DNA from: Byssovorax sp.
GTDB lineage: Bacteria; Myxococcota_A; Polyangia; Polyangiales; Polyangiaceae
Direction of reading: 5' to 3'
Assembly: GCA_025362495.1 (NCBI GenBank)
Contig: JANYGI010000126.1
Coordinates: 117,815-181,814, forward strand
DNA: 64,000 bases
A model generated the notes under the pieces. It searched no databases. It saw only the letters and a program-made list of their open reading frames with translations, and was not told the DNA's origin. Made by a program: the position numbers and the translations under genes. This document shows, in pieces, positions 38,345 through 60,045 of this stretch (the stretch's first letter is position 1; each line of letters begins with the position of its first letter).

Positions 38345-39192
38345 GGCGCTCTTTGTCAGCCGTCGGCTCGCCGGCGCTCGGAGCGGGGGCGCGGGCAGCG
38401 ATGGGGGCGGGCCAGGCCTGAGCGGCCCATTCCGGTGGTCGAAGCCACGACGAAACCCAGTCCTGGATTTCCGGGAGCTTGGCGATTGCGGCCTGCGCGA
38501 GCGGGCGATCACTGTCTTGAGCCGGCTTCAAAAGCATCTCTCGCACGATGCCGAGCCAGGGGCGCGATGGCGACAGGTGAGCTCGCAATCGCTCTTTCGT
38601 CTCCTCCGAGACCTCTGACTCCTGGATGACGCGCGCGAACAGGAACCTCAGATCTTTCGCAGCGTGAAGCCGTTCCCCATCGTAGAGCCGCAGGGCGAAG
38701 GCTACGCGCGTCGCCTGCGCTCGCTCTCTGCGGCCTGGCAAGGGACAGCCCATCGTCGCGCCCGTCAACGGATACCAGCTCAAGTAGTCGAGCGGCTCGT
38801 CACGCGTTGGATCGAGGAGCAACGGTGCGCCATCGAGCCCGAGCGGCATCGCCTCTCCGCGGGCGCTGTTGCAGTTGCGGCACACGGGGAGGAGGTTGTT
38901 CCAGCGAAACATCCGCGCCGGATAAGCCGACCTGGGAAAGACATGCTCGCCCGTGAGCGGCGCTATCTGCTCGCAGTAGGCACATTTGCCGTGGAAACAG
39001 GAGAAGAGCCACACCCAAGACCTTTTTCCCTGCCTCTTGTGGGTGTCTGGATCGGAACTCGTTCCAGCGCGACTTGATGAGCTTGATGCCCGGCGCGAGA
39101 TCCCTCCTGGCCTTGCGGTGGTTGTCGATCAGCGCACGCCCCGTGTCGGCATCGAGCACGCGCTTTGCCGGTGGGCGCTCGCCGCGGATCAT
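38328..39192 (-). pseudogene. HNH endonuclease, PtuB-like, split by a 1-nt frameshift near an A5 run
   Basis: N-term frame MIRGERPPAKRVLDADTGRALIDNHRKARRDLAPGIKLIKSRWNEFRSRHPQEAGK; +1 frame SWVWLFSCFHGKCAYCEQIAPLTGEHVFPRSAY...WNNLLPVCRNCNSARG. Span is 3n+1 nt; removing one base gives a 287-aa ORF. Confidence 0.75.
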
Positions 39193-47476: not shown

Positions 47477-48955
47477 TCAGGGGAGCGAGTTGGCCGAGCG
47501 CGGGTTGGCCGAGCGGCCCTCCCACGGCGACGCGAGGTAAGGGAACGTGGCCTTGAACGGCGTCTCGTTGCCCGTGGGACCGTCGGGGATGCCCGCCGGG
47601 AACGGCGTCCCCGCGTTGAGCGTGCAGAGCAGGAGCTTGAGCTCCACGTCGACCACGTCCTCGTCGAGCTTGCGCCCGTTGGGGAAGCCGGAGGGCTGCC
47701 CGAGGTCGACGCGGAGCACGTCGCCGATCGAGTTGATCTTCTCCGCGCCGGTGTGATCGGGCAGGTTGATGATCGGCACGATGTCGCCGAGGCGCCCCGA
47801 CTCGAGGGCCGCGAGGCCGCCGCCGGGCACGCAGGCCGCGAGGGGCCCGCCCGCCGCGTAGAAGCCAATCGCCTCGGCGTCGCGCACCACGATCGGCTTG
47901 TCGAAGTACTGCGCGTAGTAGGTGGCGTCGTCGTTCGGAGCGCGCCTGTTCCAGCCGTCCTTGTCCTGGAGGCCAATCACGGCCTCGTTGATCAGCGGCA
48001 GGCCGAGGCGCGAGACCTGACGCCACCCGCCGTAGTGATCGTCGTCGCCGTCCTTGCGAAGGATGGTGACCTGTTGCCGGCTGGCCGAAGCCCAGACTCC
48101 CACCGTCTGCGCGGCGTGCGGCCCGGCGACGGGCGCGTTACCCCCGTTGGCGACCGTGAGCGGGATCTCGAGGGTGATCGAGTGCACGTTCATGTACTTG
48201 ATGCTGTCGCGCGCGGCCTCGGTCGGGTTGGCCACGGGGCGGATCTGGGCGAGATCGAAGATGCCGCCGAGGTCGACGAAGAACGGATCGTCGCGCGGGC
48301 CGGCAAAGGCCTTTCCGCCGCCGGGGATCGAGGCGACGTACGAGGTCGCCGCGTCGTCGATGAAGAACTGCTCGTAGGTCTTCCCCGCGGGGATCGCGTA
48401 AGCGACGCTGTTGGTCGCCGGCCCCACGTTGGGCGGAGGCACCTTGGCGTTGACGACGATGTTCTTCGACGGCTTGCCCGGCTCCTTCATCGTCACCGTG
48501 TAGGTCTGCTTGAAGGCGCCGCCGCCGGAGAGCTGACCGAAGAACTCGCGGCCGCCGGCGGGCGCAGCCTCGTTGAGCATCGGATCATGGTAGACGACGG
48601 GCGCCGTCTTGAACCGGATCTGGTAGGTGAGCGCGTCTTGAAGGCTGTTGGCGCCGCGCGTGAGGTGGATCTCGTAGAGCACGTCGTCGGAGAACTTCGC
48701 CCAGTTCGGCCCGCCCTCCGGCAGCTCGAGGCCGATGTAATTGGCCACGACGACGAGGTTCGAGCCCTGGACCCAGGCGTAGGTGTCGGTGTTGTCCGCC
48801 GCCGGATCATCGGCGATCGCGGGGGCTTCGCGGTGGCTCGAGGCCGACGCGACGGTGGACATGCCAAGCAATCCGAGCGCCGTCAGCCCGGCGCTCATCC
48901 TGCGGAGTTGCTTCATCATGGTGGGAGCTCCTGCGGTAACGTTGCGACGAATCAT
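47477..48955 (-). CDS. DUF4331 domain-containing secreted protein (full length)
   Basis: SSHREAPAIADDPAADNTDTYAWVQGSNLVVVANYIGLELPEGGPNWAKFSDDVLYEIHLTR...VSRLGLPLINEAVIG...FPYLASPWEG. Confidence 0.88.
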   Translation of the reverse strand: MIRRNVTAGAPTMMKQLRRMSAGLTALGLLGMSTVASASSHREAPAIADDPAADNTDTYAWVQGSNLVVVANYIGLELPEGGPNWAKFSDDVLYEIHLTRGANSLQDALTYQIRFKTAPVVYHDPMLNEAAPAGGREFFGQLSGGGAFKQTYTVTMKEPGKPSKNIVVNAKVPPPNVGPATNSVAYAIPAGKTYEQFFIDDAATSYVASIPGGGKAFAGPRDDPFFVDLGGIFDLAQIRPVANPTEAARDSIKYMNVHSITLEIPLTVANGGNAPVAGPHAAQTVGVWASASRQQVTILRKDGDDDHYGGWRQVSRLGLPLINEAVIGLQDKDGWNRRAPNDDATYYAQYFDKPIVVRDAEAIGFYAAGGPLAACVPGGGLAALESGRLGDIVPIINLPDHTGAEKINSIGDVLRVDLGQPSGFPNGRKLDEDVVDVELKLLLCTLNAGTPFPAGIPDGPTGNETPFKATFPYLASPWEGRSANPRSANSLP

Positions 48956-51543: not shown

Positions 51544-52272
51544 TCAGTGCGGCTTCGCGAGGTACGGGAACGTCGTCCCCTTGGTGTCCGCGTCCGGCGG
51601 GACGCCGTCGGTCACCGCCGCGCCTGCCAGCGTGGTGTAGCTCGCGTCGATGACGTCGTAGTCGAGCTTGCGTCCGCCGCAATCCGTGTTGGTCATGCCG
51701 AGGGCGTTGACTTCGACGGCGAGGTACGTACTGCAGGTCGTACCCTCGGTGTTGACTCGCACGCGGTCGTCCGCGAGGACGCCGGCGAGCGCGGCGTAGC
51801 TACCAGGAGCCGGCGGCTTCATCGCGAGGATCTGGTTGCCACAGTTGGTGTCGAGGCTGTCGAGGATCGCGAGGTTGGCCGAGATCTCCTTGACGTTCGA
51901 CGTCCAGGTGGTCGGATCCGACTGCTGGTTGTAGGCGTCCTTGGCCGCGCCCTTGGTCGCGTCGACCGGGTCGAACGCGTGGTTCAGCGCCGTGTTGATC
52001 GCCGGGCGACCGAAGCGGTCGATCTGCGTGCCGAGCTTCGGCGGAGCCGGGGTCGTCATGCCGCCGCCGGTGCCCGATGCCGAGCTGGACGACGTGGTGG
52101 ACGCCGCGCCGCCGGTGCCCGCCGCCGCCGTCGACGAGGTCGCCTCGGAGGAGCCGCCGCCGGTGCCGCTGCTGGTGCTGGTGGTGGTCGTCGTGTCGCT
52201 GCCGCAGCCCTGGAGGGCAGCGACGGCAAGCAGAGAAGAAGCGAGCAGGCCGATGTAAAGCTTGGTGTTCAT
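51544..52272 (-). CDS. DUF4331 C-terminal-half lipoprotein
   Basis: LAVAALQGCGSDTTTTTSTSSGTGGG... then LGTQIDRFGRPAINTALNHAF...LDYDVIDASYTTLAGAAVTDGVPPDADTKGTTFPYLAKPH, matching the second half of DUF4331 proteins. Confidence 0.7.
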   Translation of the reverse strand: MNTKLYIGLLASSLLAVAALQGCGSDTTTTTSTSSGTGGGSSEATSSTAAAGTGGAASTTSSSSASGTGGGMTTPAPPKLGTQIDRFGRPAINTALNHAFDPVDATKGAAKDAYNQQSDPTTWTSNVKEISANLAILDSLDTNCGNQILAMKPPAPGSYAALAGVLADDRVRVNTEGTTCSTYLAVEVNALGMTNTDCGGRKLDYDVIDASYTTLAGAAVTDGVPPDADTKGTTFPYLAKPH

Positions 52273-52276
52273 GTGA

Positions 52277-53002
52277 TCAGCCTCCCACGTTGGTGCTGGC
52301 CCAGGCGCTCATGATCGGGCCGCCAGCGTTGAGCATCGACTTGTCGACGGAGAGCACGATCGAGAGGACGTTCTTGCCCGCGAAGAAGTCCTTCGCAGCG
52401 GCGCCCGGAGGAGTCGACGTCGGATCGGTGCTGAGCGCCTTCACGAGCGCCATCGACGTCGCGGCGTCGACCGCGGGGCAGCCCGCGGCATCGAACGTGA
52501 GCGAGGCAGCTTTGGCTTCGACCGCCCCGACGGCGGCCTTGAAGCCGGTGAGGTTGAAGAAGAACGGGTCGTCGCGGAGGCCGGCGAAGACCTTGAACTT
52601 CCCGTCGGCGCTCGCGAGGCCGCCGGCCGCGCTGGCGTCGCCGGCGACGTAGCCCTTCTCGCCCACCCAGACGCTGGCCTTCTGGGCCGCGTCGAACGTG
52701 ACGATGATGTCGGACTTCTCGCCCGGCTTACCGAAGGCCGAGGCGCTCTCGGTGTGGATGACGTACTGGACCTTGTCCGAGAACTTCGCGTCGGTGGCCG
52801 CGAGCGGCGTGACGTTGAGCACGAAGACCACGTGGCCCTTGTCGACGCCGGCGGTCTCGGTCCAGGTGTAGAGGTCGGTGATGTCGGCCGCGGGGTCGGC
52901 GATCGCAGCGGGCGCGTCGATGTGATCGGCCGCCAGGGCCCACGACGCAGCGCTGAGCACGGAGAGCGCGAGCGCGCCCTTTAACCAAGTCATTCTCTTC
53001 AT
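52277..53002 (-). CDS. DUF4331 N-terminal-half secreted protein
   Basis: Signal peptide ALSVLSAASWALA; DHIDAPAAIADPAADITDLYTWTETAGVDKGHVVFVLNVTPLAATDAKFSDKVQYVIH...FAGLRDDPFFFNLTGF. Confidence 0.8.
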   Translation of the reverse strand: MKRMTWLKGALALSVLSAASWALAADHIDAPAAIADPAADITDLYTWTETAGVDKGHVVFVLNVTPLAATDAKFSDKVQYVIHTESASAFGKPGEKSDIIVTFDAAQKASVWVGEKGYVAGDASAAGGLASADGKFKVFAGLRDDPFFFNLTGFKAAVGAVEAKAASLTFDAAGCPAVDAATSMALVKALSTDPTSTPPGAAAKDFFAGKNVLSIVLSVDKSMLNAGGPIMSAWASTNVGG

Positions 53003-53283: not shown

Positions 53284-54474
53284 ATGTTCGACGTCGCCCG
53301 ATCGATCTACACCGAGACGCTCGCCGAGATCCGCGCCGCTGGCCTCTACAAGGAAGAGCGGGTGATCACCTCGCCGCAGGGCGCGACGATCCGCACCGCC
53401 GCGGGGCAAAGCGTCCTCAATTTTTGCGCGAACAACTACCTCGGCCTCTCGTCGCACCCCGACGTGATGAAGGCCGCAAGCGGAGCGCTCGACAGCCACG
53501 GCTTCGGCATGTCGAGCGTGCGCTTCATCTGCGGCACCCAGGACTTGCACAAGAAGCTCGAGGGCAGCGTCGCCCGCTTCTTCGGCATGGACGACGCGAT
53601 CCTCTACTCGTCGTGCTTCGACGCCAACGGCGGCCTCTTCGAGACGCTGCTCGGCGAGGAAGACGCGATCATCTCCGACGCGCTCAACCACGCTTCGATC
53701 ATCGACGGCGTGCGCCTCTGCAAGGCCGAGCGGCACCGCTACCCCAACGGCGACATGGCCGCGCTCGAAGAGGCGCTCCGCAAGACGCAGGGCAAGCGCC
53801 TGCGGATGATCGCCACCGACGGCGTGTTCTCGATGGACGGCTACCTCGCGCAGCTCGACACGATCTGCGATCTCGCCGATAAATACCGGGCGATGGTGAT
53901 GGTCGACGACTCGCACGCGACCGGCTTCATCGGGCCGACGGGCCGCGGGACGCCGGAAGAGTGCGGCGTGCTCCACCGCGTCGACGTGCTGACCTCGACG
54001 CTGGGCAAGGCGCTCGGCGGCGCGAGCGGCGGCTTCACCGCAGGCCGCGCCGAGATCGTCGAGCTGCTCCGGCAGCGCTCGCGTCCGTACCTGTTCTCGA
54101 ACTCGCTCGCGCCGAGCATCGTCGGCGCGTCGATCGCCGTGCTCGAGCTGCTCGATCGCGATCCCGCGCCGCGCCTCCGCGTGATGGACAACGCCCGCCA
54201 TTTCCGCGAGGAGATGACGGCCGCGGGCTTCACGATCAAGGCCGGGATCCACCCGATCGTGCCGATCATGATCGGCGACGCCAAGCTCGCCTCCGACATG
54301 GCGAGGGCCATGCTCGACGAGGGGATTTACGTGATCGGATTCTCGTACCCGGTGGTGCCGAAGGGCGAGGCGCGCATCCGCGTGCAGCTCAGCGCCGGGC
54401 ACACGACGGAGAACGTCGATCAGGCGATCACGGCGTTCACCAAGGTGGGCAAATCGATGGGAATCATCGATTGA
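53284..54474 (+). CDS. kbl: Glycine C-acetyltransferase (2-amino-3-ketobutyrate CoA ligase)
   Basis: [20 protein letters not shown]...[41 protein letters not shown]...[22 protein letters not shown]...[12 protein letters not shown]. Confidence 0.95.
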
Positions 54475-54584: not shown

Positions 54585-57500
54585 TCACGTCCCCCACCGA
54601 CGTCTCTCATACTCTTCGCGCGCCGCGTGCAGCTCATGGGTTCGCTCAAGCTCGTCCACCAGCAGGTTGGCCCATGCCCGCACTTGGGGACTTGCATCCG
54701 TCGTCCACGGCCGTGCTCTTGCCACCTGCTCATTCACGAAATCAGCCAGACTCGACACAGCCTGAGGCGTGCTTTCGAGCTGAGCGGCGAGCAACCGGGA
54801 ACAGGGCCCATCTGGGCCGAATCGATCAATCAGCGCATGTGCGATAACGGGCAAGCCGGGGCCGTCGTGCATTGGCACCATCGCTGCGACGAGATGCGCA
54901 CGTTGCTCATCTCCGTCTACCCAAGCGAGAATGTCGGGATGACGAAGAGACGAGAGGATTCCATGCTGGGACATCCCCATGGCGAGCAACCCTGCAGACC
55001 GCCCCTTCACTTCTAGACGCTCCGCGATCCGCTTCCAGGTTCTCTCGGGGTCCTTCTTCGCGCATTCGCGCAGCACGGACCAGACCTCGTCGTTGCCAAG
55101 ATCGTCGTCCTCAGTACTCAGCGCGCTGACGGCGAGCTTCGTGACGATTGCCACGTCGCCCATGGAAATGAGTTCTTTCGCGCCCATCTCCCAATCATAG
55201 GCGACCATGCCTGCGAGCTTGCTCGTAATGGCGTGCCTGAGCGCGCGAGAGAGCAAATCCTTCCATCGTGTGGCCGAACTTTCTTGTTCCTTGATCCGGT
55301 GAGCTACCAGATTGAGAGCGATTTCTGTTGCTTGCGTTGAACCTCGATCGAGGAGCGCTTCGAGTAGCTCTGCCAGCGTGTCGTCGCTGGCTGCCTTCTC
55401 CCAGCTCCCGAGCGTAAACATGGAGAGTATGCGATCGGGGAGCCGACCAGCGCGAAGATCTTCCACCACGAAACGGAGCCGCTCCTCGGTCGCACCGAGT
55501 CGCCACACGGCGAGCGCAACAGTTTCGGCGAACGCCTCTTCGCTACGAAGTCGGCGGAGGAGCACGTCGACCTCGGCTTCGCGGCCAGCCAGCTGAAAGC
55601 CTCGCAAGTAGGCTGTGAAGAGATCCGGATGACCAGCCTTTGCCCGCTCGAGCAGACGCTCCAAGATGATCCCTTCGTTGTCGGCCTTGCCGAGTGCGAT
55701 CGAAAATGGCGTGCTACGAACCGCGTCGGTTGAAGAAAGCCAATCAAGCTCTCGGAGAACCGGCCGGTCGGGAGGGGAAAGTCCTTCTCGTGCGAGCGCC
55801 GAGTCATTTCTATCAGCTTCCAGATGTGCGGCGCGGCTCCATGAGCCCACGCGCTGGCGGAGCCTCTCGCTGAATGATTGTGCCTTTGTCGCTTCGACGA
55901 GAGCGTTCCAGTCGTCGTTTGCCCCTACTTGTTTGATGTTCTGCCCGTTGCGCTCGCTCGCGAGCGAGATCACATCGCGCAGTTTTCTCAGATCATTCTC
56001 GCCAAAGTGCTGAATAAGAGGAATCAGCAGGCGCGCGACGTCGCCGATGAGGGCTGTGCGCGTCACACCGGGGATCTGGTGGATCATGATCGCTCGCGCC
56101 TTCGAAGCCACCGTTGGATCTGGATCGCGTACGCACTCTGCTAGCAGGGTCCAAGCTGCAAGTCGCGCGTGTCGAGCCTCAGCATGGGTAAGCGACGGAT
56201 AGGCACCGTCGATCTCTTCTCCCGCCATGTTCCAGCTATGTGTCGAAATCGCTGCTGTAAGACCTCTCAGCGCCACAAGGCGCGATTCAGAATCCCCCAT
56301 CGTACAACGCTCGCGCAAGCGCGGCAGTTTTTCCTCGAAGCGCTGATATGTGGCGTTCAGCTCGATGAGAAATAGGCTCGCCCACAGGCCGCTCGCATTG
56401 TTGGCAAAGGCTTCGTTTTCGGCAACAGCGAGCCGGAAGAGCGCAGACTCGGCTTCGTCAAAGCCCAAGCGCCTTCCGGCGAGCGACTGGAGCGCAAAGA
56501 TCAGGTCGCGACGCAGAGCCACGCGCGACCGTAGCTCGTCGAGAGACGTTTCTTCGATCCGGATCCGAAGCAGGTGGACTACAGCCTCAGGCTGGTAACG
56601 AGCGGCGAAACGCAGCGCCGCGCCCGACACTCCCCCCCGTCCCAGGACAGCGAGCCCGGGCGGTGCCGCCTCCAAGGCTCGGACGATGGGCAGCGCCAGT
56701 TGCGACAGAATTGTGACGTCGAAGCCTAGCTGCTGGAGACGTTCATAGAACCGCGGCAAGAAGCGGCGAGCATATCTCTCCAGATCTGGTCCGCGCGGCT
56801 CAGTGCCGTCGGGAGGATCGAGCAGCATTCGCGCGACCTCCCGTTCCAGGACAGCAGGCGTGACATATCGATAGGCGTCCTTGAGACGTATCCGGAGCAG
56901 ACCTCGTTTGTTGCACTTCCGCGTCGCGCTCTCGACCTCCGTCCAGTGATTGAGCCCGACCGCTTTACACAGGTCCTCACGGTCCGCCAAGGTGAGCGAG
57001 CTCCAAGCCACGTTCTCCGTGAGCATCGCGACGAGAAGCGCGCGAGCACGACGAAGTATTTCGTCTTCCCAGGCGTCATCGCTTACCCCATGCCTTGGGG
57101 ACAGCGCTAATTTGGCAGCTTGGGCGGCGGTCGTGGGTGGTGCGGCACCAAGCTTTATCTCCTTTGCAACGAGGAGCGCATACCATGGAAACCCCTCCGC
57201 AAGACGCGCGACTGAAGCAACGTTGGTCGAGCTTGCCGGCTCGCCAAGCTCGCGAGCAATGAGCTCGGCGAGCGAGGTCTCGTTCATCGGATTGATCTCG
57301 ATCCGATTGAGCCCGTGCCGCGGTTTCTCATTCCGACTCCACTCGGGCGCCATCGGCGTGAGCACGACCAGCCCACCTTTCGCATGGTGGTTGGTCGATG
57401 TCAACCATGGCATCAACGCCTCGAGTCCTTCCGGGGGGGCAGTCGTCAACGATGAGTATGGCCGTGGGATAACGATCGTAGAGGCCGTAGTCTCGCGCGG

Positions 57501-58491
57501 CGGCAACAGCTTCCTCGAAGGACGGCGCAACGAGGGCGCGTTGGCGGAGAAGAGCATCGCTTCGGAGAGTTTCGACGACGAGCCGCGTTTCCCCCACGCC
57601 GGGCGCGCCGATAAGCCAAGCGACACGGCCGTAGGGATCGTCGGTGTCCGCAGTCAGCAACGAGCGGAGCTGATCCTGAATTGTCGTGCGCTTCGGGTCG
57701 AGCACAAATGGCGGCGTCCCACGGTCCCGATCATGGTAAAATCGCCACTGGTCCAGCATGAGAAGGCCGGGTATCGGTGCGGCTGCTAGCTTGTTGCGGA
57801 GCGCAAGTGACAGCTCGTTCGGCTTGCGACAGCAAATGTAGTCTTTGAGATCATTCGCGTCGACGATGCGTATCCTGTCGATTGGATTCGACGCGCCGGG
57901 CGCTATCGTGCGCATGCGATCGCCGTATATTTCTTCGAGCTGATCCGTGAGTGTCTTGCCTGGCGCTGATAACGGGATGGACGTGCTCGCTCCCTTGGTC
58001 TTCAGCGTAGATTTGGCGAGCTTCTTTTTCAGGCTCTTCTTCGCGGATTTATTTCCCGGCGAAGTCGGGCCCCGGTCGATGGGTAGATTGACCAGAACAA
58101 CAAAATATCCGCCTCCGTGGAGGGCATCAAGCGCCCAAGGGCTGCCGTTGCGTGCCTCGTCGAGCACGGTTTTTTGCCAGTTTGCTCCGGTCTTGCAGCT
58201 GAAGACCGTGTATGCGACGAGATCTCCCGTGAGCGGAGCCACGTTCCACTCAGCGCGAAAGTCTGCGTTTGATTTCCTAGGAGGGCTCTTGATCCGAAGG
58301 CCAAGATCCTTCCCGGGCGAATACTTCGCGGGTGGGCCCTCGAACACGTGGTCCTCGGAATGACGATCCTTGCTCTCGAGCGAGATTAGCTCGGAGCACA
58401 GCCCCTCGAACTCGCCAGGGTCGAGTTGTCGTAGCGCATCGGGCGAAACGTCGTCCCAGCCGAGACTCCAGCGCGAGGTGCCATTTGCCAT
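54585..58491 (-). pseudogene. Avs-like STAND NTPase with N-terminal PD-(D/E)xK-like domain and long helical C-terminus, interrupted by a 1-nt frameshift in a C7 tract (plus-strand G7, 57433-57439); may be phase-variable rather than dead
   Basis: N frame: LDPGEFEGLCSELISLES...YSPGKDLGLRIKS...VAYTVFSCKTG; GRVAWLIGAPGVGETRLVVETLR; PTAILIVDDCPP | other frame: PPEGLEALMPWLTSTNHHAKGGLVVLTPMAPEW...; span is 3n+1 nt, minus one base gives 1301 aa. Confidence 0.75.
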
Positions 58492-58644: not shown

Positions 58645-58850
58645 CGGCGCCAACCTCGTCCAGACGACCTTTCGGGCGATCGACCGGGGCCTCGACCACG
58701 CCCCGGCGATTTGCAGGGCGATGCTTCGGCGGTCCGACCTCGCCCGGGCGACCAGCAGCGCGAAGGTTTGGGGGTTCTGATCTCGCCGACGCGACGTGCA
58801 GGTCGATCGGTAGGGGTTCCGACCTCGTCAGGAGCAGCGACGGCCACTGA
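58645..58850. repeat. Degenerate about 42-bp tandem repeat, 5 copies
   Basis: Aligned motif ACCTCG/ACCACG/ATCTCG at 58653, 58695, 58737, 58780, 58822 (steps 42, 42, 43, 42); minus-strand translation shows a 14-aa periodicity. Confidence 0.7.
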
Positions 58851-58875: not shown

Positions 58876-60045
58876 TCAGTACGTGATGACGACCTTGGGA
58901 TAGGTCGAGATCGCCTTCTGGAAGTCGTCCTTGTCGTACTCGTCGAACTTGAACATCGTGCCTTCGCCGCGGTTCAAGATGACCTCCCAGATCAGATCGT
59001 GGATGTTGGGATCGCGCGACTCGAGGAGGTGCCGGGTGATGTGCCAGGTCTCGAAGATGCGGCGGCCGATCACGCTGTGGAGGCTGATGCCATCGACGAT
59101 CAGGCGGTCGAAGTTCTCGATCACGGCGTCGCCCGTCTTCAGGCCGAAGAGGATGACGTCGCCGCCGCGACGAACGGAGTGGATCGCGTTGTTGACGCTG
59201 GAGTTGATGCCCGTCATCTCGAGGACGACGTCGACGCCGACGCCGTCGGTGAGCTTGCGAATGCGGGCCGTGAGCTCGGGATCGCTCTCGTGCGAGTGGC
59301 CGTTCTTCGCGGGCTCGGGGCGGAGGACGACGTCGGCGCCGAGGCGGCGGGCCATCTCGGCGTGGTTCTCCATCGGCTCGACACCGATGACGTAGATGGC
59401 GCCCATGGCGCGGGCGATGGCGATGGCGAAGAGGCCAATCGTCCCGCAGCCGACGATGGCGACGCGCTTGCCGCGCAAATTCACCTTGGTGCAGGCGTGG
59501 ACGGCGTTGCCGAAGGGCTCTTGCACCGCGGCGACCTCGGGGCGAATCCGCTCCAGGTTGGTGCGCCAGATCGTCTTGGCGGGGAGCTTCACGACCTCGG
59601 CGAAGCAGCCGTCCTCGCTGATGCCGATGATCTTGTCGTCGGCGCAAACGTGGGTCTCGCCGATACGGCACTGGTAGCAGGCGCCACAGATGATGTGGCT
59701 CTCGGTGGTGACGACGTCACCCACCTCGATGCCATAGGCGCGCCGCGCCTCGGTGCCCGCCGCGACGACGCGGCCGAGCAGCTCGTGCCCGATGACGCGC
59801 TTGTCCTTGTGGTCGCGATCGAGCGACTTCATGATCATGTCTTTGAAGGACGACCGGAACCAGATCCCGCGGTCCGAGCCGCAGAACCCGGTCATCATCG
59901 GCTTCACGAGCACGCTGGCGCGGTCGTGATAGTCCTTCGTTTCGTCGAGTATCGGGCGCTCGACCTCGGTCTTTCGCAGGCCGACAGTCTTGTCCCACTC
60001 GTCGGTGGAACGGTCGTACGTGAGCGCCAACATCCTGTCAGTCAT
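58876..60045 (-). CDS. Zinc-dependent alcohol dehydrogenase family, L-threonine 3-dehydrogenase-like
   Basis: KPMMTGFCGSDRGIW...VIGHELLGRVVAAG..EVGDVVTTE...CGACYQCRIGETHVCAD...EPFGNAVHA...VAIVGCGTIGLFAIAIARAMGA. Confidence 0.82.
   Translation of the reverse strand: MTDRMLALTYDRSTDEWDKTVGLRKTEVERPILDETKDYHDRASVLVKPMMTGFCGSDRGIWFRSSFKDMIMKSLDRDHKDKRVIGHELLGRVVAAGTEARRAYGIEVGDVVTTESHIICGACYQCRIGETHVCADDKIIGISEDGCFAEVVKLPAKTIWRTNLERIRPEVAAVQEPFGNAVHACTKVNLRGKRVAIVGCGTIGLFAIAIARAMGAIYVIGVEPMENHAEMARRLGADVVLRPEPAKNGHSHESDPELTARIRKLTDGVGVDVVLEMTGINSSVNNAIHSVRRGGDVILFGLKTGDAVIENFDRLIVDGISLHSVIGRRIFETWHITRHLLESRDPNIHDLIWEVILNRGEGTMFKFDEYDKDDFQKAISTYPKVVITY

What the first reader, a model, noticed from the sequence alone, without database searches (positions are those of the whole stretch)
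54585..58491. Avs-like STAND anti-phage candidate: nuclease-like N-terminus, P-loop, about 850-aa helical sensor region
After repair of one base, a 1301-aa protein results. It has an N-terminal domain with LDPGEFEGLCSEL...GKDLGL...VFSCKTG (PD-(D/E)xK/Mrr-like spacing), a STAND-type P-loop (GRVAWLIGAPGVGETR, Walker B-like TAILIVDD) and a long C-terminus of weakly repetitive helices. This effector-NTPase-sensor layout is that of Avs proteins. I could not assign it to a named Avs type.
Basis: partly seen in the sequence, partly recalled or inferred. Interest (0 to 1): 0.78.

Follow-up and report, generated by a model that had tools for sequence, protein, structure and literature searches.

The report
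Damaged nuclease–STAND phage-defence gene
A large myxobacterium-type genome carries a horizontally acquired gene for a three-part phage-sensing 'alarm' protein (DNA-cutting head, nucleotide switch, long helical sensor); it belongs with the PD-lambda-4 defence proteins rather than the Avs proteins, and this copy looks switched off because its reading frame is broken and the key residue of its nucleotide switch is changed.

Summary
On the minus strand, 58491 to 54585, two overlapping frames together encode one ~1,301-residue protein; the frame changes inside a 7-base C run (coding strand). Intact single-ORF relatives of 1,256–1,291 aa exist in other genomes. The layout is Mrr/PD-(D/E)xK-like nuclease, STAND NTPase, ~850-residue all-helical region. 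Profile comparisons support the first two (Mrr profile 91–96% probability against <1% for decoys; NB-ARC structures at E 3.9e-8).

With the frame break, this copy is probably inactive, although assembly error is not excluded.

It is not a typed Avs. The Avs2 model does not match this genome, and no Avs structure is hit although an Avs2 structure is in that PDB copy. The family aligns end to end with PD-Lambda-4_A-type proteins (hhalign probability 100%, E 2.9e-53), as a separate branch with SxK instead of QxK in the nuclease motif.

The gene sits alone between kbl and tdh, which are neighbours without it in 28 related genomes. Its GC3 is 0.66–0.69 against 0.86–0.93 next door: horizontal gain.

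The parts
54585..58491 (-). whole gene, broken in frame: nuclease-like domain, STAND NTPase, helical sensor region (PD-Lambda-4_A-related)
57432..58491 (-). in-frame N-terminal piece, 353 aa (nuclease domain, linker, first half of NTPase)
54585..57431 (-). in-frame C-terminal piece, 948 aa plus stop (rest of NTPase, GxP motif, helical region)
57433..57439 (-). run of 7 C (coding strand) inside which the reading frame changes; one of only two G/C runs of 7 or more in the 64 kb window
58396..58425 (-). LDPGEFEGLC, first helix of the Mrr/PD-(D/E)xK-like domain
58300..58314 (-). GKDLG, catalytic-type Asp of the nuclease motif (GGxD in relatives)
58186..58203 (-). FSCKTG, SxK motif; this Lys is kept in all 16 relatives that have the domain
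57583..57609 (-). degenerate Walker A, GAPGVGETR; Glu where 17 of 17 relatives have Lys (codon 57589-57591)
57442..57462 (-). Walker B-like AILIVDD
57177..57194 (-). GFPWYA, GxP-type motif at the end of the STAND NTPase
54588..56873 (-). all-helical C-terminal region, putative sensor, ending in the family's conserved RRxGT tail
53284..54474 (+). left flank: Kbl-like glycine C-acetyltransferase (aminotransferase class I/II)
58876..60045 (-). right flank: Tdh-like zinc dehydrogenase; adjacent to kbl without the gene in relatives

Best explanation
This is a horizontally acquired, probably inactivated copy of a nuclease-STAND-helical-repeat phage-defence protein. It belongs to a branch of the PD-Lambda-4_A superfamily found mainly in this bacterial class. 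In intact relatives the long helical C-terminus would bind a phage component, the STAND NTPase would exchange nucleotide and drive oligomerisation, and the clustered N-terminal Mrr/PD-(D/E)xK-like domains would then cut DNA, stopping phage replication, probably with death of the cell. Shown here: homology, domain layout, patchy distribution, insertion site, foreign composition, the frame break and the Walker A K-to-E change. Inferred: phage sensing, oligomerisation, DNA cutting, cell death and loss of function in this copy.
For: Intact single-ORF relatives. Full-length profile match to PD-Lambda-4_A-like proteins, probability 100%, E 2.9e-53, 1,177 columns; the window gene itself hits the PADLOC model PDLC03991 at E 4.8e-6 and L020 at 1.3e-12. 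Nuclease: N-terminus against Mrr profile 91-96%, decoys and shuffles below 1%; the motif Lys is invariant. STAND: NRC1, NRC3 and MLA13 NB-ARC, NLRP1 and Apaf-1 in the PDB, Walker B and GxP motifs. Helical C-terminus (HEAT hits in 2 of 5 relatives). Gain: kbl-tdh adjacent without the gene in 28 relatives, GC3 0.66-0.69 against 0.86-0.93, sparse in the order. Some relatives lie beside defence genes: type I restriction plus integrase (L028), SIR2 (L026), AAA_21 ATPases (L021, L023), phosphorothioation methyltransferase plus integrase (L144). Lesions: frame break and Walker A K-to-E. Lys-to-Ala at this position abolished Avs5 immunity (PMC12931631).
Against: No phage-defence phenotype is known for this branch; the tested system is the E. 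coli PD-lambda-4. Most relatives in this class sit alone among ordinary genes. The single-sequence fold of the N-terminus was unusable (pLDDT 36). Apart from the two lesions the window copy shows no excess of changes at conserved positions (5 of 44, against 0-9 in intact relatives), so inactivation is recent or apparent. The motif is SxK rather than (Q/E)xK, so catalysis is not guaranteed.
Confidence: 0.68

Rival explanations
1. The gene is intact and functional in the organism; the frame break, and possibly the K-to-E change, are sequencing or assembly errors in this 240-contig draft.
For: The break is in a homopolymer run, a classic error site, and the rest of the protein shows no excess of lesions.
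Against: The Walker A change is a substitution, not an indel. In about 52 kb of other coding sequence in the window the frame scan gave six direct frame changes; those inspected sit at gene junctions and none is in a run of 7 G or C, although one (39192) was left unresolved. Two independent errors in one gene would be needed.
Confidence: 0.27
2. It is a true Avs protein (Avs1-Avs5).
For: Same nuclease-STAND-C-terminal sensor order; one relative gives a marginal Avs2 hit (E 0.0078).
Against: The Avs2 model has no match in this genome. hhalign of the family against a genuine Avs2 from the same phylum gives 1.3% probability, though that side was a single sequence. No Avs structure is hit by a 13-member profile, although Avs2 9o4e is in the same PDB copy. 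The sensor is homologous to PD-Lambda-4_A over its length.
Confidence: 0.05
3. It is a STAND regulator or signalling ATPase with a non-defence role, for example in development, and the N-terminus is a catalytically dead REase-like domain.
For: Bacteria of this kind are rich in STAND proteins (general knowledge); the nuclease motif is SxK; most relatives in this class are solo genes among ordinary genes.
Against: Sparse distribution, horizontal gain at an otherwise empty site, invariant nuclease Lys, homology to a defence protein and defence neighbours of some relatives.
Confidence: 0.12
4. The C run is a functional switch: programmed frameshifting or slippage lets some cells or ribosomes make the full protein.
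For: The break lies in a 7-C run, and both G/C runs of 7 in the window are in this gene.
Against: None of six intact relatives has the run at this place; 7 is short for phase variation; the Walker A Lys would still be missing.
Confidence: 0.03

Closest known systems
PD-Lambda-4_A (PADLOC PDLC03991; PD-lambda-4 system of Vassallo et al. 2022, PMC9519451)
   Same: Same length (1,283 positions), same domain order, end-to-end profile homology (probability 100%, E 2.9e-53); shared GGxD...K nuclease motif, Walker A/B and GxP positions.
   Different: Only 19-20% identity to L020; SxK instead of QxK; separate branches in the tree; no second component was identified beside the relatives examined; this copy lacks the Walker A Lys and is frame-broken.
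Avs1-Avs5 (AVAST)
   Same: Nuclease or other effector, STAND NTPase, C-terminal sensor; presumably the same working principle.
   Different: No sequence match to the Avs2 model in this genome and none to Avs structures.
Mrr-type restriction endonucleases (PF04471)
   Same: N-terminal domain profile match 91-96% with aligned FE helix, GGxD and K.
   Different: The Q of QxK is S in this branch; fused to a STAND NTPase; below Pfam thresholds for single sequences.
Plant and animal STAND NTPases (NRC1, NRC3, MLA13, NLRP1, Apaf-1)
   Same: About 180 aligned residues of the NB-ARC/NACHT-type NTPase.
   Different: Different effector and sensor; remote similarity only.

Membership tests
PD-Lambda-4_A superfamily | Matches the PADLOC PD-Lambda-4_A profile | tested here: met
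   Window gene E 4.8e-6 over positions 553-749 in its own genome; L020 1.3e-12. The match is partial; the single-piece scan of the N-terminus gave only E 0.031.
PD-Lambda-4_A superfamily | Full-length colinear homology over all three regions | tested here: met
   hhalign probability 100%, 1,177 aligned columns, family 6-1262 against 2-1239.
PD-lambda-4 system | Second component beside gene A (the '_A' label implies a partner) | tested here: inconclusive
   No PADLOC partner hit among two neighbours of L069; window flanks are kbl and tdh; which partner is required could not be confirmed from the text held.
PD-lambda-4 system | Protects against phage | not testable with these tools
   Shown only for the E. 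coli system (PMC9519451).
STAND NTPases | NB-ARC/NACHT-type NTPase with Walker A, Walker B and GxP motifs | tested here: met
   Family: PDB NB-ARC hits at 3.9e-8, motifs. For the window copy itself the Walker A Lys is missing.
STAND NTPases | Walker A lysine present in this copy | tested here: not met
   GAPGVGETR; 17 of 17 relatives have Lys.
Mrr/PD-(D/E)xK nucleases | Profile homology to Mrr catalytic domain with decoy control | tested here: met
   91.3% (this branch), 96.2% (all members), decoys 0.9% or less.
Mrr/PD-(D/E)xK nucleases | Catalytic D and (E/Q)xK | tested here: inconclusive
   D and K present; the E/Q position is Ser in the window and Ser or Thr in the relatives of this branch.
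Avs1-Avs5 | Sequence match to an Avs family | tested here: not met
   Avs2 model: none in own genome. No Avs chain hit while the positive control finds 9o4e. Avs1, 3, 4 and 5 models tested only through the PADLOC scans.
Avs1-Avs5 | Recognises terminase, portal or another phage protein | not testable with these tools
   Needs experiments.

The most novel reading that the evidence does not exclude
The branch in this bacterial class and PD-Lambda-4_A together form a separate, largely unrecognised lineage of bacterial pattern-recognition STAND nucleases, parallel to Avs1-5, with its own helical sensor and, in this branch, a serine-variant (SxK) nuclease site.
Probability: 0.4. Interest if true: 0.55.

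Novelty: new variant of a known kind. Interest (0 to 1): 0.36.

Why it matters
It ties an orphan experimentally found defence protein (PD-lambda-4 A, reported with only a P-loop) to a clear effector–STAND–sensor plan, and supplies a divergent set of intact relatives in which the phage trigger and the nuclease site can be tested. It also shows that the window's own copy is a poor choice for that test.

Tried and rejected
AlphaFold2 on the window's N-terminal piece alone: pLDDT 36, not used. The C-terminal piece: pLDDT 51, only its all-helical content is used; Foldseek hits were importin/HEAT-like and other solenoids with query-normalised TM-scores below 0.2, so no fold claim is made. Two scans of genome contigs and three of viral contigs found no relatives; protein searches of phages with L069 and of plasmids with L020 gave none, while L069 found 44 plasmids. 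Age of decay: an odd-one-out count at conserved positions showed no excess in the window, so an old pseudogene is rejected. Mobile-element ends: no convincing flanking repeats. The codon-model frame scan does not recognise most of this gene as coding, which fits foreign composition.

Full report
What is there. The window lies in a 10.8 Mb draft genome of 240 contigs; genome sizes of 13–16 Mb in the same family suggest large-genome myxobacteria (inference). On the minus strand, ORF 57328–58491 (387 aa) and ORF 54585–57626 (1,013 aa) overlap in different frames. The first aligns with intact relatives up to its residue 353, and the second takes over at once: 323 and 333 in L020, E 1.7e-55 and 3.3e-132. 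The frame changes in a run of seven C on the coding strand. Six intact relatives have no such run at that place.

Relatives. Searches of 186 genomes of the same order found relatives in 8 (N piece) and 7 (C piece), own genome included; one of the N-piece hits (G184) is a P-loop-only match to a kinase-like protein. Intact ORFs of 1,256–1,291 aa were retrieved from G168, G531, G012, G002, G005, G007, G494, G489 and G591, and C-terminal or truncated copies from G166, G005 and G010. The window protein groups with G168 and G531 with support 0.996.

Domains. The N-terminus of this branch matches a profile of true Mrr domains collected from the same order: 91% alone and 96% with the PD-Lambda-4-like members, against 0.9% or less for other parts of the same proteins and for column-shuffled Mrr. 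The aligned features are the FE helix, GGxD and K. The window keeps the Asp (GKD) and Lys (FSCK). The E/Q position is Ser in the window and Ser or Thr in this branch, but Gln in the PD-Lambda-4-like members. A profile of 13 members finds NRC1 (3.9e-8), NRC3, MLA13, NLRP1 and Apaf-1 over up to about 180 residues, so the centre is a STAND NTPase. The rest is predicted all-helical (mean pLDDT 51), with weak HEAT hits in two relatives.

Damage. The Walker A Lys is Glu in the window (GAPGVGETR; codon GAA). It is Lys in all 13 members of the first alignment and all 17 of the second. In Avs5, changing this Lys to Ala abolishes immunity (PMC12931631). At other conserved positions the window is no worse than intact relatives (5 of 44 changed, range 0–9). 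Both lesions are therefore recent, or one or both are errors. The rest of the window shows no comparable break at a long G/C run: there are only two G/C runs of 7 or more, both in this gene and only one at a frame change. Six direct frame changes were flagged elsewhere; those inspected lie at gene junctions, and one near 39192 was not resolved.

Origin. The gene lies between kbl and tdh-like genes. In 28 related loci kbl and tdh lie within 1.5 kb of each other with no such gene between; 17 of these, including the closest, have the same convergent order as the window. In G168 the relative of this gene is elsewhere on the chromosome. GC3 is 0.69 and 0.66 for the two pieces, against 0.86–0.93 for neighbouring genes. 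This is a single-gene gain at an otherwise empty site. No mobile-element ends were recognised.

Which family. PADLOC's PD-Lambda-4_A model finds the window gene (4.8e-6), L020 (1.3e-12) and true members such as L069 (7e-90). Family against PD-Lambda-4-like profiles align over 1,177 columns at E 2.9e-53. The wider PD-Lambda-4_A family occurs on 44 plasmids, many from Rhizobium; one copy lies near a phosphorothioation-associated methyltransferase and an integrase. Avs was tested and not met: no Avs2-model match in the genome, 1.3% against a genuine Avs2 used as a single sequence, and no Avs PDB hit with a working positive control. Avs1, 3, 4 and 5 were tested only through the PADLOC scans.

Mechanism. 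By analogy with STAND defence proteins (PMC12931631; PMC12724215), intact relatives probably detect a phage component with the helical region, switch by nucleotide binding, oligomerise, and activate the nuclease to cut DNA. Everything after the domain assignments is inference. The window copy as assembled would make a 387-aa fragment with the nuclease and half an NTPase, plus possibly a separate C-terminal fragment. It should not work as a sensor.

Verdict. A real and correctly read domain layout, filed under the wrong family name, in a copy that is most likely inactive. It is a divergent branch of a known kind of system.

Noticed in passing
window 58652-58832: Four copies of a 42-43 nt periodic unit, 63-70% alike, just upstream of the gene; Tandem Repeats Finder does not call it and the best match elsewhere in the genome is weak (E 0.015).
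   Followed up: partly
window 51547-52272 and 52280-53002, minus strand; also 47480-48955: Three DUF4331 genes; two adjacent ones carry complementary parts of the DUF4331 profile (251-421 and 127-235), as if one protein were split in two genes, the downstream one with its own lipoprotein-type signal.
   Followed up: no
window 56632 and 57433: The only two G/C runs of 7 or more in the 64 kb window are both inside this one gene; only the second coincides with the frame break.
   Followed up: partly
L025:7718-8935 (G166): A C-terminal-only remnant, 44% identical to the window protein, preceded by a repeated low-complexity reading frame: another degraded copy of the family.
   Followed up: no
L028:7820-15226 (G010): A truncated PD-Lambda-4-like gene (809 aa) between a phage-type integrase and type I restriction R and S genes.
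   Followed up: partly
L083, L090, L091, L092: The kbl-tdh junction is 0.7-1.25 kb long in some relatives, so other small insertions may use this spot.
   Followed up: no
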